Below, one piece after another: positions 6,367 through 11,219 of a stretch of 37,594 nt of DNA; the stretch's first letter is position 1, and each line of letters begins with the position of its first letter. The stretch is from Candidatus Omnitrophota bacterium (GTDB taxonomy: Bacteria; Omnitrophota; Gorgyraeia; 2-02-FULL-51-18). The position numbers were made by a program, and so were the translations under genes. The DNA lies in assembly GCA_016180585.1 (NCBI GenBank), contig JACPAX010000060.1, positions 1 to 37,594 on the forward strand. Reading direction: 5' to 3'. The notes beneath the pieces were generated by a model that was not told the DNA's origin, made no database searches, and saw nothing but the letters and a program-made list of their open reading frames with translations.

Positions 6367-6900
6367 ATGATTTTAAAAAACATCGTACTGATCGGATTCA
6401 TGGGCACCGGGAAGACCAGCGTCGGGAAGATTCTCGCCTCGAGGCTGGGGCGCCGCGTGATCGATATCGATCGTTTCATCGAGACGTCCGAAAAAAAGAA
6501 GATCCGCGAGATTTTTGAAAAAGAGGGGGAGGCCCGTTTCCGGGTTCTTGAAAAAGAAGCCGTGGGCGTCGTCGCGCGTCAGACGGGTGTTGTCATCACG
6601 ACGGGGGGAGGGGTCGTGCTGGACCCGGAGAATGTCCGGGCGCTCCGCCGGAACGGGGTGCTCGTGGAGCTTACCGCGACTCCCGAGACGGTATTTCGCC
6701 GCGTCAAAGACTCCGCGCGCCGGCCGCTTTTGGGCGGCGGCGATTTGATGGCCAGGATTCGGGAGCTTTATGAACCGAGAAGGGCCCTCTACGGGCAGAG
6801 CGATTACCATTTTTCGACGGACGGGCGCTCTCCTTCCGAAGCGGCCGACGAAATTTTTGAGAAATTGAAAGGGCCCCTGGCGCTTGAAAACGGCGGATGA
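6367..6900 (+). CDS. aroK: Shikimate kinase
   Basis: A 177-residue nucleoside monophosphate kinase-like enzyme phosphorylating shikimate. The P-loop GFMGTGKTS is at residues 10-18, followed by DIDRFIE with the shikimate-binding Asp, and TTGGGVVL with the glycine-rich substrate loop. A later RRPLL motif fits the lid. Length is standard. The ATG at 6367 has GGGGAT upstream. Its end overlaps the next gene's TTG start by 17 nt, so translation is likely coupled to dprA. With aroE and aroC it gives three of the shikimate-pathway steps in this cluster. Confidence 0.95.
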   Translation: MILKNIVLIGFMGTGKTSVGKILASRLGRRVIDIDRFIETSEKKKIREIFEKEGEARFRVLEKEAVGVVARQTGVVITTGGGVVLDPENVRALRRNGVLVELTATPETVFRRVKDSARRPLLGGGDLMARIRELYEPRRALYGQSDYHFSTDGRSPSEAADEIFEKLKGPLALENGG

Positions 6901-8002
6901 GTTGGTGCAGGTCGTGGCGCTGAGCCTGGTCGAAAATCTCGGTCCCGTCACGTTCAAGAAGCTGGTCGAAGAATTCGGGAGCGTCCAGGCCGTCTGGGAG
7001 GCCGGCAAGCGCGGTCTCTCGCGTCTGGCGAGAGTTAAAAAGATAGCGGCAAACGTTCCGCGGGATCTCGGGTCCGAAGCGTTTTTGGACCGGGCGGCCG
7101 AGGAGATCAAGACGGCCGGCGACCACGGCGTCGAGATCGTGACTTTTTTTGACGCGCGGTATCCCGCGGATTTAAAAGAAATCTTCGATCCGCCGATCCT
7201 TCTTTACGTGCAGGGAGACCTTCCGGAAGAGGGGCTGCCGGAGATCGCCGTCATCGGATCGCGCGAGGCGTCGCTCTACGGGGCGAGAATGGCGCGGTCG
7301 ATCGCCAGGGGCTTGGCCGCCGCCGGCGCGGCGGTGGTCAGCGGCATGGCCCGGGGCGTCGATTCCCAGGCGCACGAGGGGGCGCTCGAGGCGGACGGGG
7401 TCACGGTCGCGGTCTTGGGAGGGGGGCTGTCCCGTCTCTATCCTCCGGAGAACCGGAGGCTTGCCGCGCGCATCGCCAAAAAGGGGGCTGTGATTTCCGA
7501 GTATCCGATGCGCCGGTTTCCCGAGCCGGGAAATTTTCCCGTGAGGAATCGCATCATCAGCGGCCTCTCCCGCGCGGTCGTGGTGGTCGAGGCGAGGGAA
7601 AAGAGCGGCGCGCTCATCACGGTGGACGCGGCCCTTGAGCAGGGGCGCGACGTCTTCGCGGTGCCCGGAAACGCCGACTCGGCCAGGTCCAGGGGGACCA
7701 ACCGGCTTTTAAAGCAGGGCGCCAAGCTCGCCGAATCCGCCGAGGATATTTTGGAAGAGCTGGGACTTCAAAAAATCGGGACGGCCCGCGCGGGAGTCTC
7801 CGGGAAGCAAAACCCCCGGGCGGAGGTCCTCACGGAAGCCGAGCGGAGTGTTTTATCTTTTTTTGATTCGGAACCGCTGTCCGCGGACGAGCTTGTCGAC
7901 AAGAGCGGCCTGGCGGCAAGCCAGGTGGTCGGCACGCTTCTGTCGCTTGAGATGAAACGGCGGGTCCGCAAAGAACCCGGCAATTTTTTCGTGAAAAGAT
8001 AA
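6884..8002 (+). CDS. dprA: DNA-processing protein DprA
   Basis: A 372-residue DprA/Smf protein, which loads RecA on incoming single-stranded DNA during natural transformation. The N-terminal part has a helix-hairpin-like segment (ENLGPVTFKKLVEEFGS). The Rossmann core is evident: AVIGSREAS, VVSGMARGVDSQAHEGAL, GVTVAVLGGG, SEYP and FPVRNRIISGLS. The C-terminal 60 residues look like the winged-helix domain (SADELVDKSGLAASQVVGTLLSLE). The start is probably the TTG at 6884; a GTG at 6905 is an alternative. The order dprA-topA-xer is widely conserved. No other competence gene except the prepilin peptidase is present. Confidence 0.93.
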   Translation: MKTADELVQVVALSLVENLGPVTFKKLVEEFGSVQAVWEAGKRGLSRLARVKKIAANVPRDLGSEAFLDRAAEEIKTAGDHGVEIVTFFDARYPADLKEIFDPPILLYVQGDLPEEGLPEIAVIGSREASLYGARMARSIARGLAAAGAAVVSGMARGVDSQAHEGALEADGVTVAVLGGGLSRLYPPENRRLAARIAKKGAVISEYPMRRFPEPGNFPVRNRIISGLSRAVVVVEAREKSGALITVDAALEQGRDVFAVPGNADSARSRGTNRLLKQGAKLAESAEDILEELGLQKIGTARAGVSGKQNPRAEVLTEAERSVLSFFDSEPLSADELVDKSGLAASQVVGTLLSLEMKRRVRKEPGNFFVKR

Positions 8003-8018
8003 CAGGCGAATCAATAAA

Positions 8019-10328
8019 ATGGAAAAGGCCATGACCCGTGTGAGCATCCGGTTAAACGGCGAAGAAAAAACCTTCGACGGTCCGTTGTCGCTTGCCGCCC
8101 TCCTCGGGCGCCTGTCGCTCCCCAAAGAGAAAGTCGTCGTCGAGCTCAATCTCGAGATTGTCCCCAGGACGGATTTGGAGGCCCGCGCGCTCAAGGACGG
8201 CGACGAGGTGGAGATCGTCCACTTTGTGGGGGGCGGGTCCGAGCCTAAGGCGCGTGGCCCGGCCGGCGGGGGGGCGCTCGTGATCGTGGAGTCGCCGGCC
8301 AAATGCAAGACGATCCACAAGTATTTGGGGGCCGGCTACGAAGTCGCCGCGTCGATGGGGCACGTGGTGGATCTCCCGAAGAGCCGGATGGGGATCGATG
8401 TCGAGCACGGGTTTGAGCCGCAGTACATCGTCGTGAAGGAAAAGAAAAAGACGCTGGCCGATCTCAAGGCGAAGGCGAAGAATAAGCGCGAGATAATCCT
8501 TGCCTGCGATCCCGATCGCGAGGGAGAGGCGATTAGCTGGCATCTCAAGAACGCGCTTGGCGACGGCAAGAAGGTCTCGCGAGTGGTGTTCCATGAGATT
8601 ACCAAGGATGCGGTGCAAGAGGCCTTCAGGCATCCGACGGAGATCAACATGGACCTTGTGGGCGCCCAGCAGGCCCGTCGGGTGCTCGACCGAATCGTCG
8701 GATATTCCCTGAGCCCGCTTTTATGGCAAAAGGTCGGGCGCGGTCTCTCGGCGGGGCGCGTGCAATCCGTGGCGCTGCGCCTGGTTGTCGACCGGGAACG
8801 CCAGATCCTGGCGTTTTCGACCGAGGAGTACTGGACGATCGAAGCGGACCTAAAAAAGCAAAAGGGCCAGTCCAAGACTTTTGTCGCAAAGCTTGAGAAG
8901 GTCAAAGACCAGAAAGCCCGGATCCCGGACCGGGAGACCGCCGAGGGATATCTCGAGAAAATCAAGGGACGGCCGTTTGTCGTCCGCGACGTCAGGGAGC
9001 AGAGAAAGAAAAAAAATCCCTCCTCGCCGTTTACCACCAGCAAGCTCCAACAGGCGGCGTACAACCTCCTCCGGTTTCCCGCCTCGAAGACGATGCGGAC
9101 GGCGCAGACGCTCTATGAAGGGGTCGAGATCGGCGAAGAGGGCAGCATCGGTCTCATCACTTACATGCGCACGGATTCGGTGCGGATCTCGGACGGGGCG
9201 GTCGCCGAAATTCGGAAGCTGATCCTCGGGGATTTCGGCAAGGCGTACTTGCCGGCAACCCCCCCTGTGTATCGTTCCAAGAAACGGGCGCAGGAAGCGC
9301 ATGAGGCGATACGTCCGACCTCGGCGTTCCGCCGCCCCGAAGACATCGAAAAATATCTGACCCCCGATCAATTCAAGCTCTATCGCCTGATCTGGCGACA
9401 GGCCGTCTCAAGCCAGATGACCCCGGCCGTGATTCGCCAGGAGACTGTGGAAATAGCGGTCGGCCGAAGGTCCGCCGACGCTGCAGCGGCGGAAGATTAT
9501 TTGTTTAAGGCGACGGGAAGCCAGGTGGAATTTGCCGGTTGCCTGGTTCTCCAGGGCCGGTCCGAAGAGGAGGACAATCCGCTTCCCAAACTCAAGGCCG
9601 AAGAGACGCTGGATCTTGTGAAGATCGAGAAACACCAGCATTTCACCAAACCGCCGGCGCGGTATACCGATGCGTCCCTCATCAAGGCCCTTGAAGAAAA
9701 CGGGATCGGACGGCCATCGACGTACGCCCCGATTCTCATGACGCTGACCGGCCGCGATTACGTGCGGCGCGAGGGGGGGAGTCTGGCGCCCACGGAGCTG
9801 GGGATGCTCGTGACGGATCTTCTGGTCAAACATTTTGAGAAGATCATGGATTTTAAATTTACGGCGAACATGGAGGAAGCGCTCGACCGGGTTGAAGAAG
9901 GCGCGATCGAATGGGTCGCGGTGGTGAAGGAGTTTTACGGGATTTTTGACGGGCAGGTGGCGCTTGCCAGAACGGGGATGCAGGCGGTCAAAAAAGAAAA
10001 CGAGCCGACGGACGAGGTATGCGAGAAATGCGGCAAGCCCATGGTGATCAAGTGGGGCAGGCGCGGACGGTTCATGAGCTGTTCGGGGTGGCCCGAATGC
10101 AAAAACGCCAAATCCATTTCGACGGGGATCGCCTGTCCGCAATGCCGCGAGGGCAAGCTCGTCGCCCGCCGCGCGAAATCCGGCAAGGGGCGCCCTTTTT
10201 ACGGCTGCACGCGTTACCCGAACTGCAATTTTATCACCAACAAACTCCCCTCCGCCGCCCCATCGTCGGAGGACGGACCCGCCACGGAACCCTCCAGCGA
10301 CGCCTCCGAGACCGAGCCGACGGCTTGA
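8019..10328 (+). CDS. topA: ThiS-like ubiquitin-fold domain fused to DNA topoisomerase I
   Basis: A 769-residue frame with two parts. Residues 5-73 match the ThiS sulfur-carrier family over its full length (RLNGEEKTF, VVVELNLEIVPR, LKDGDEVEIVHFVGGG), including the terminal Gly-Gly. After a short linker (SEPKARGPAGGG), TopA begins at residue 87 with LVIVESPAK, then the TOPRIM acidic motif DPDREGEA, the catalytic Tyr382 in TYMRTDS, and two C-terminal four-cysteine zinc ribbons. TopA relaxes negative supercoils. No stop separates the two parts. An in-frame GTG at 8280 directly after a run of seven G could start a stand-alone TopA. A one-base loss in that run would end the ThiS part at TGA 8281-8283, overlapping the GTG. 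Start ATG 8019 or 8031. TopA is certain; fusion as expressed is less so. Confidence 0.88.
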   Translation: MEKAMTRVSIRLNGEEKTFDGPLSLAALLGRLSLPKEKVVVELNLEIVPRTDLEARALKDGDEVEIVHFVGGGSEPKARGPAGGGALVIVESPAKCKTIHKYLGAGYEVAASMGHVVDLPKSRMGIDVEHGFEPQYIVVKEKKKTLADLKAKAKNKREIILACDPDREGEAISWHLKNALGDGKKVSRVVFHEITKDAVQEAFRHPTEINMDLVGAQQARRVLDRIVGYSLSPLLWQKVGRGLSAGRVQSVALRLVVDRERQILAFSTEEYWTIEADLKKQKGQSKTFVAKLEKVKDQKARIPDRETAEGYLEKIKGRPFVVRDVREQRKKKNPSSPFTTSKLQQAAYNLLRFPASKTMRTAQTLYEGVEIGEEGSIGLITYMRTDSVRISDGAVAEIRKLILGDFGKAYLPATPPVYRSKKRAQEAHEAIRPTSAFRRPEDIEKYLTPDQFKLYRLIWRQAVSSQMTPAVIRQETVEIAVGRRSADAAAAEDYLFKATGSQVEFAGCLVLQGRSEEEDNPLPKLKAEETLDLVKIEKHQHFTKPPARYTDASLIKALEENGIGRPSTYAPILMTLTGRDYVRREGGSLAPTELGMLVTDLLVKHFEKIMDFKFTANMEEALDRVEEGAIEWVAVVKEFYGIFDGQVALARTGMQAVKKENEPTDEVCEKCGKPMVIKWGRRGRFMSCSGWPECKNAKSISTGIACPQCREGKLVARRAKSGKGRPFYGCTRYPNCNFITNKLPSAAPSSEDGPATEPSSDASETEPTA

Positions 10329-10334
10329 GGTCCC

Positions 10335-11219
10335 ATGCATCCATGGTTTGGAAAGTTTTTGACGTATCTGAAGGCGGAGAGGAATAGCTCCCCCCATACG
10401 CTGATCGGGTATACGCATGACCTTGGGGAGTTTTTCCGCTTTCTCGGAGACCTGCCGGTCGAGACGGTCGAAAAAGACCGGCTGCGGGCGTATCTGGCGT
10501 TCTTGAAGGAATCCAATCTTTCGAAACGCACCATCGCGCGGCGCACCGCCTGTCTGCGCACTTTTTTCCGTTTTGCGCGGCGGGAGGGTTTTCGTCCGGA
10601 CAATCCGATGGCCAGCCTGCAGAGCCAAAAACTCGAGAAAAGGCTTCCGCTGGTGCTCGACGAAACGGAGGTCGCGCGGCTTTTGGAATCGCCCGAGGAC
10701 GATCTGTCCGGCCGCCGGGACAGGGCGGCGTTCGAGACGCTTTATTCAACGGGGATGCGGGTGTCGGAGCTTGTGCGGCTGGATCTGGACGCGGTGGATT
10801 TTATCGGCGGCGCCTGTCGCGTCATCGGCAAGGGGTCCAAGGAGCGCCTGTGCCCGATCGGGGACAGGGCGCTCAAGGCCATCCGGCATTACCTGGAGCT
10901 GAGGGACAAAAAAGGGGGACCGAAGGCCCCTCGGGCGGTTTTTCTCAACCATTCTCCGAACCGGCGGGGCTCACGGCTGACCGAGAGAAGCGTGCGCCGG
11001 CTTCTGGACAAATACATCCGGAAGACCAGCCTGCGGGAGGGGATCTCCCCCCATACGCTCCGGCACTCTTTTGCGACGCATCTTCTCAACCGCGGGGCGG
11101 ATTTGAGATCGGTGCAGGAGCTTTTGGGCCACGAGAATTTGTCGACGACGCAGATCTACACGCATGTCTCGGCCCAGCGGCTGAAAGAGGCGTACGACAA
11201 GGCGCATCCCCGGGCGTAG
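10335..11219 (+). CDS. xerC: Tyrosine recombinase XerC/XerD type
   Basis: A 294-residue site-specific recombinase that resolves chromosome dimers. The N-terminal SAM-like DNA-binding domain spans about residues 3-85. The catalytic residues are all present: Arg142 (TGMRVSEL), Lys166 (GKGSKE), His240 and Arg243 (HTLRHSFATHL), His266 (LLGHENLSTTQ) and the nucleophile Tyr275 (IYTHVS). The length fits XerC/XerD and not phage integrases, which are usually longer with an N-terminal arm-binding domain. It lies 6 nt after topA, the usual housekeeping place. XerC versus XerD cannot be told apart here. Confidence 0.92.
   Translation: MHPWFGKFLTYLKAERNSSPHTLIGYTHDLGEFFRFLGDLPVETVEKDRLRAYLAFLKESNLSKRTIARRTACLRTFFRFARREGFRPDNPMASLQSQKLEKRLPLVLDETEVARLLESPEDDLSGRRDRAAFETLYSTGMRVSELVRLDLDAVDFIGGACRVIGKGSKERLCPIGDRALKAIRHYLELRDKKGGPKAPRAVFLNHSPNRRGSRLTERSVRRLLDKYIRKTSLREGISPHTLRHSFATHLLNRGADLRSVQELLGHENLSTTQIYTHVSAQRLKEAYDKAHPRA

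What the first reader, a model, noticed from the sequence alone, without database searches (positions are those of the whole stretch)
8019..10328. ThiS sulfur-carrier domain fused in frame to topoisomerase I
Residues 5-73 are a full ThiS fold ending in VHFVGGG, followed without a stop by a linker and complete TopA. ThiS normally needs a free C-terminal Gly-Gly for adenylylation, so a fused copy is either processed after the Gly-Gly, as ubiquitin precursors are, or used as a non-catalytic ubiquitin-like domain on TopA. I know of no described ThiS-TopA fusion, though I cannot search for one.
Basis: partly seen in the sequence, partly recalled or inferred. Interest (0 to 1): 0.75.

Follow-up and report, generated by a model that had tools for sequence, protein, structure and literature searches.

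The report
ThiS sulfur carrier fused to topoisomerase
In uncultured Omnitrophota bacteria the small protein that carries sulfur for making vitamin B1 is built as the front end of an unrelated DNA enzyme, topoisomerase I, so it probably has to be cut free before it can work, much as ubiquitin is cut from its precursors.

Summary
Window 8019-10328 is one open frame: a ThiS domain (TIGR01683, residues 10-73, ending EIVHFVGGG), a probably disordered linker, then complete TopA. It is not an artefact: I read 34 such fusions, all in Omnitrophota (7 families). Gly-Gly is kept in 34 of 34 while the linker varies from 4 to 65 residues. thiS lies directly upstream of topA across much of the phylum, split or fused; fused versus split changed about 7 times on the TopA tree. 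Split copies often carry 1-5 residues after GGG; thiS genes beside thiG end exactly at GGG (20 of 20). The topA-linked ThiS is very probably the thiamine sulfur carrier: ThiG occurs in 39 of 44 topA-linked genomes against 13 of 121 with neither linkage, and in 33 of the 44 it is the only ThiS. Best reading: a precursor cut after Gly-Gly, with TopA as a giant C-terminal cap. A JAMM protease is the leading candidate (38 of 44 topA-linked genomes, 6 of 32 thiG-linked) but was not found in several genomes of the window's family. Cleavage is inferred, not shown. I found no description of a ThiS-TopA fusion; ThiS-ThiG fusions and JAMM-uncapped carriers are known.

The parts
8019..10328 (+). ThiS-TopA fused gene (769 aa)
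   Evidence: single open frame; TIGR01683 plus TIGR01051
8046..8237 (+). ThiS beta-grasp sulfur-carrier domain, residues 10-73
   Evidence: PF02597 and TIGR01683 above cut-offs; AF2 block-mean pLDDT 81-96 over residues 1-70
8229..8237 (+). Gly71-Gly72-Gly73, proposed cleavage point (after Gly73)
   Evidence: GG kept in 34/34 fusions, GGG in 32
8238..8273 (+). linker SEPKARGPAGGG, no in-frame start codon
   Evidence: residues 70-83 pLDDT < 50; 27/34 fusions have no in-frame ATG/GTG/TTG between GGG and Toprim
8277..8600 (+). Toprim domain of TopA, residues 87-194
   Evidence: PF01751 80.7 bits
8643..9929 (+). topoisomerase I core, residues 209-637
   Evidence: PF01131 403.9 bits
10014..10118 (+). 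best-scoring of two zinc ribbons of TopA, residues 666-700
   Evidence: PF01396, two stretches
6884..8002 (+). dprA, upstream neighbour
   Evidence: TIGR00732 252.8 bits, above its cut-off
10335..11219 (+). XerC/XerD-type tyrosine recombinase, downstream neighbour
   Evidence: NF001399 297.7 bits, above its cut-off; TIGR02224 XerC 332.2, just below its cut-off of 335.15

Best explanation
The gene encodes a precursor. Its N-terminal part is the thiamine sulfur carrier ThiS and its C-terminal part is housekeeping TopA. A protease cuts after the third glycine, giving ThiS with a free diglycine that ThiF can adenylylate and that ThiG then uses for the thiazole of vitamin B1, and a TopA with an ordinary short N-terminus. 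TopA thus acts as a giant C-terminal cap. The arrangement arose because thiS sat directly upstream of topA; once a peptidase could trim residues after the diglycine, a stop codon immediately after it was no longer needed, short caps appeared, and stop loss fused the genes several times. The likeliest peptidase is a JAMM metalloprotease encoded in most of these genomes. Shown: fusion, diglycine retention, caps, co-occurrence with ThiG, ThiF and JAMM. Inferred: the cleavage, its site, the enzyme and the order of events.
For: (1) Diglycine retained in 34/34 fusions while the linker varies from 4 to 65 residues; in a 14-row alignment GGG are 3 of 10 invariant ThiS positions. (2) In the class sample ThiG is in 39/44 genomes with topA-linked thiS versus 13/121 with thiS beside neither; the 5 absences fit incompleteness (5.7 expected). 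(3) In 33 of these 44 the topA-linked copy is the only TIGR01683 ThiS; G004 (92% complete) has no other ThiS-family protein but has ThiG, ThiF and ThiC. (4) Split topA-linked ThiS often carry V, A, R, AA, AR, CG, SGG, SFAE or SIHGR after GGG; thiG-linked ThiS end at GGG in 20/20. (5) JAMM in 38/44 topA-linked versus 6/32 thiG-linked genomes; by family 10/10 versus 3/11. (6) The second ThiS, beside JAMM, is itself capped (MV, AWA, SPSDKEA and others) or fused to CysK; capped carriers uncapped by a JAMM-type protease are described (QbsD; proposed for PtmS1 and MV-capped PtmS2: PMC6006322). (7) Linker at very low model confidence, as for a disordered stretch. (8) JAMM motif residues conserved: E23, H78-x-H80, S88, D91.
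Against: No proteomic or biochemical data. JAMM was not found in 5 of 13 genomes of the window's family (1.8 expected from incompleteness, P = 0.02), nor with a profile of the class's own JAMM proteins at E <= 10 in nine JAMM-negative genomes, so another protease may act there. JAMM is encoded in the cysteine cluster, not beside topA, so its association could come from cysteine synthesis and shared ancestry (topA linkage changes only 3 times on the tree).
Confidence: 0.68

Rival explanations
1. ThiS is a permanent, non-catalytic ubiquitin-like domain on TopA that modulates the topoisomerase or links it to another protein.
For: In-frame fusion conserved across a whole family; in 27/34 genes no separate start for TopA exists in the linker.
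Against: The diglycine tail, of no obvious use to a structural domain, is retained in all fusions while the linker is free to vary. Linked copies track ThiG and are usually the only ThiS. Relatives have the two as separate genes.
Confidence: 0.12
2. The fused ThiS no longer carries sulfur; thiazole sulfur comes from another carrier such as the CysK-linked ThiS, and the fused copy is a relic.
For: The window's genome has a second TIGR01683 ThiS and a SAMP1/MoaD-like carrier.
Against: Tail and core residues conserved over long divergence; 33/44 topA-linked genomes have no other TIGR01683 ThiS and 30 of those have ThiG.
Confidence: 0.1
3. Free ThiS is made at the ribosome by frameshifting or slippage on the G-rich glycine codons, with TopA made from read-through.
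For: G-rich codons at the junction; in the window a -1 shift meets a stop after 3 codons.
Against: Distance to the first stop in shifted frames is not conserved (1 to 136 codons) and the glycine codons vary, so there is no fixed slippery site.
Confidence: 0.05
4. Artefact of assembly or a sequencing error that removed a stop codon.
For: Split copies with an in-frame stop exist in relatives (G035).
Against: 34 fusions in separate genomes with unrelated linkers.
Confidence: 0.01

Closest known systems
ThiS-ThiG fusions of proteobacteria
   Same: N-terminal ThiS with an internal diglycine followed in frame by a second protein; noted in Iyer et al. 2006 (PMC1779556) and seen here in Sphingomonas loci (GGG-DHAAP...ThiG)
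   Different: There the partner is ThiS's own pathway enzyme; here it is an unrelated housekeeping DNA enzyme.
Capped sulfur carriers with a JAMM-type protease (QbsE/QbsD of thioquinolobactin; PtmS2/PtmS1)
   Same: Residues after Gly-Gly must be removed before activation; PMC6006322 says capped carriers typically require such a protease and reports an MV cap on PtmS2, as on one ThiS2 here
   Different: The caps reported there are one or two residues; here the cap is a whole topoisomerase. The JAMM gene is not beside topA.
Ubiquitin-ribosomal protein precursors of eukaryotes (own knowledge)
   Same: A ubiquitin-fold protein made as the N-terminal part of an unrelated housekeeping protein and released after Gly-Gly
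   Different: Release by deubiquitinases is proven there and only inferred here. ThiS is a sulfur carrier, with no protein tagging shown.
Canonical thiS beside thiG
   Same: Same family (TIGR01683); same final nine residues as B. subtilis ThiS
   Different: Those beside thiG in Omnitrophota end exactly at GGG (20/20).

Membership tests
ThiS sulfur carrier (TIGR01683) | score above the equivalog cut-off over the whole model | tested here: met
   66.9 bits against 37.45, model positions 1-64 of 64
ThiS sulfur carrier (TIGR01683) | Gly-Gly at the very C-terminus of the polypeptide | tested here: not met
   Gly-Gly present but followed in frame by linker and TopA; would be met only after cleavage
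ThiS sulfur carrier (TIGR01683) | partners ThiF and ThiG in the genome | tested here: met
   ThiF G000:C11, ThiG G000:C30, ThiC G000:C55
ThiS sulfur carrier (TIGR01683) | forms a C-terminal thiocarboxylate | not testable with these tools
   needs biochemistry
Bacterial topoisomerase I (TIGR01051) | complete Toprim, core and zinc ribbons | tested here: met
   778.4 bits against 456.4, model 1-631 of 632
JAMM-processed capped sulfur carrier (QbsE/PtmS2 kind) | residues after the diglycine | tested here: met
   all fusions and many split homologues
JAMM-processed capped sulfur carrier (QbsE/PtmS2 kind) | JAMM protease encoded in the genome | tested here: inconclusive
   present in the window's genome (G000:C89) and 38/44 topA-linked genomes; not found in G001-G004, which may be incomplete
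JAMM-processed capped sulfur carrier (QbsE/PtmS2 kind) | JAMM gene next to the carrier gene | tested here: not met
   JAMM lies beside the CysK-linked ThiS2 on another contig
JAMM-processed capped sulfur carrier (QbsE/PtmS2 kind) | cleavage after Gly-Gly | not testable with these tools
   needs proteomics or an assay

The most novel reading that the evidence does not exclude
Cleavage at the diglycine is a control point that couples sulfur or vitamin B1 status to DNA supercoiling: TopA stays inactive or differently located until ThiS is released, so a bacterial ubiquitin-like precursor regulates a topoisomerase.
Probability: 0.1. Interest if true: 0.85.

Novelty: new variant of a known kind. 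Interest (0 to 1): 0.62.

Why it matters
It is a bacterial counterpart, in layout, of ubiquitin-ribosomal protein precursors: a ubiquitin-fold carrier made in front of an unrelated housekeeping enzyme, with the diglycine kept at the joint. Iyer et al. 2006 proposed that JAB/JAMM proteases could free ThiS or MoaD fused to other proteins (PMC1779556). This phylum offers natural replicates of every step (exact end, short cap, fusion), so the question of how a fused ThiS gets its free C-terminus becomes directly testable, and it bears on the known ThiS-ThiG fusions too. It also warns that thiS can be missed when it is looked for only beside thiG.

Tried and rejected
Frameshift or slippage at the G-rich junction: stops in shifted frames not conserved. 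Internal start for TopA: none in 27/34 linkers. TPP riboswitch or other Rfam element on the window or the thiG locus: none at gathering thresholds. Missing JAMM in G001-G004: a profile of the class's own JAMM proteins found none at E <= 10 while ringing strongly in two positive controls. First literature search was useless because ThiS reads as 'this'; a phrase search gave no paper. ThiS-TopA outside Omnitrophota: of the 80 best ThiS loci in GTDB genomes, topA lies within 4 kb only in the four Omnitrophota ones. A full-length model of the fusion was not attempted: the relatives allowed as input were too few for TopA.

Full report
WHAT IS THERE. Window 8019-10328 (+) is one open frame of 769 codons. 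Residues 10-73 match ThiS over the full TIGR01683 model (66.9 bits, cut-off 37.45) and PF02597; residues 87-700 match TopA over almost the full TIGR01051 model (778 bits). The ThiS part ends EIVHFVGGG, the same nine residues with which the solved chain of B. subtilis ThiS ends (1TYG chain B). AlphaFold2 on residues 1-234 gives a confident ThiS domain (block means of pLDDT 81-96 over residues 1-70), a stretch below 50 at residues 70-83 that holds the GGG, and Toprim from residue 86. Neighbours are ilvC, leuA, aroE, aroC, a shikimate kinase and dprA upstream and a XerC/XerD-type recombinase downstream.

ORGANISM AND DISTRIBUTION. Named relatives are Candidatus Omnitrophota MAGs (L251 has the contig length of G009:C2 and L252 that of G005:C23). 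In the window's family the fusion is in every genome whose 5' end is on the contig. In a class sample of 197 genomes it also occurs in families f24, f29 and f36 and once in f18; in a phylum sample it occurs in f62 and repeatedly in f53. In total I read 34 fused genes in seven families. Elsewhere thiS is a separate gene directly upstream of topA: f2, f9, f18, f20, f22, f45 in the class, and f53, f57, f59, f60, f61, f65 outside it. On a TopA tree, topA linkage against no linkage needs 3 changes and fused against split needs 7; branches of strong support alone force 3 changes of the fused state. So the adjacency looks ancestral in the phylum and the fused state changed several times. Outside the phylum, among the 80 best ThiS loci of GTDB genomes, topA was near ThiS only in the 4 Omnitrophota ones and thiG was near it in 74.

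WHICH ThiS IS IT. In the class sample, thiS lies beside topA in 44 genomes, beside thiG in 32 and beside neither in 121. ThiG is found in 39/44, 32/32 and 13/121. No topA-linked genome has a thiS beside thiG. Absence of ThiG from five topA-linked genomes fits MAG incompleteness (5.7 expected). In 33 of the 44 the topA-linked copy is the only TIGR01683 ThiS, and 30 of these have ThiG. In G004 it is the only ThiS-family protein found at all, with ThiG, ThiF and ThiC present. I take the topA-linked ThiS to be the thiamine sulfur carrier (probability about 0.85).

HOW THE END IS FREED. Carriers of this kind are adenylylated and thiocarboxylated at their C-termini (reviewed in PMC3980101). Three facts bear on this. 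First, the diglycine is kept in 34/34 fusions (GGG in 32) while the linker ranges from 4 to 65 residues; the residue after it is A (12), S (11), K (5), R (3), Q (2) or G (1). Second, split topA-linked ThiS often carry one to five residues after GGG, whereas 20/20 thiG-linked ones end exactly at GGG. Third, a Prok-JAB (JAMM) protein with conserved motif residues is found in 38/44 topA-linked genomes and in 6/32 thiG-linked ones; by family 10/10 against 3/11. The six absences in topA-linked genomes equal what incompleteness predicts (5.7); the 26 absences among thiG-linked genomes do not (1.9 expected). In the window's genome the JAMM lies beside a second ThiS fused to cysteine synthase CysK, in a sulfate-assimilation cluster; the split versions of that ThiS are nearly all capped too (MV, AWA, SPSDKEA, GDDGREN, DLKS, ENG; one ends at GGG). 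Capped carriers that need a JAMM-type protease are known (QbsD; PtmS2 with an MV cap, PMC6006322), and Iyer et al. [quoted passage not shown] Hence the precursor model, with TopA as the cap.

LIMITS. Cleavage is inferred. The JAMM assignment is the weakest step: in the window's family 5 of 13 genomes lack it (1.8 expected, P = 0.02), a profile of the class's own JAMM proteins found nothing in nine JAMM-negative genomes, and the class-wide association rests on few independent changes, so shared ancestry or the cysteine cluster could explain it. I give about 0.75 for cleavage after Gly-Gly and about 0.5 for JAMM as the enzyme. JAMM and ThiG were not tallied outside the class. Genomes are MAGs, and the phylum tree used partial TopA sequences for many rows.

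ALTERNATIVES. A permanent ubiquitin-like appendage would not need the diglycine and would not track ThiG. A dead relic is unlikely where no other ThiS exists. Frameshifting lacks a conserved site or stop. Assembly error is excluded by 34 cases with unrelated linkers.

NOVELTY. ThiS-ThiG fusions and capped carriers are known; fusion of the thiamine carrier to an unrelated DNA enzyme, its repeated appearance, and the graded series from exact end to cap to fusion appear undescribed (no paper found in an open-access library). I rate it a new variant of a known kind.

Noticed in passing
L090:5909-7066 (-), G000:C89: ThiS fused in frame to cysteine synthase CysK (TIGR01683 61 bits, TIGR01139 442 bits), directly after a JAMM gene in a sulfate-assimilation cluster with CysN, CysH and a sulfonate-type ABC transporter; split and fused forms both occur in relatives.
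   Followed up: partly
L090:1947-2588 (-), G000:C89: A SAMP1/MoaD-like carrier whose diglycine (IAGG) is followed by a C-terminal extension of about 90 residues, so all three ThiS-family carriers found in this genome have an internal diglycine.
   Followed up: partly
L255, L258-L263 and other Sphingomonas-type loci: ThiS-ThiG fusions with GGG followed by DH and a short linker; they pose the same release problem as ThiS-TopA.
   Followed up: no
L269, L272, L282 (Acidobacteriota): ThiS with short caps after GGG (RGGD, SISRCQTNS, SI), so capping is not confined to Omnitrophota.
   Followed up: no
L066, G000:C11: The ThiF gene (398-aa frame, longer than the ThiF domain) lies near an IscS-like cysteine desulfurase gene, a possible sulfur supply.
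   Followed up: partly
L240, G171:C68: A ThiS-TopA fusion nested among split relatives in family f18, with a 48-residue linker.
   Followed up: yes
L090:8376-8790: A repeat that reads ASCFMLHASCFVLHASCF in one frame, next to the sulfur cluster.
   Followed up: no
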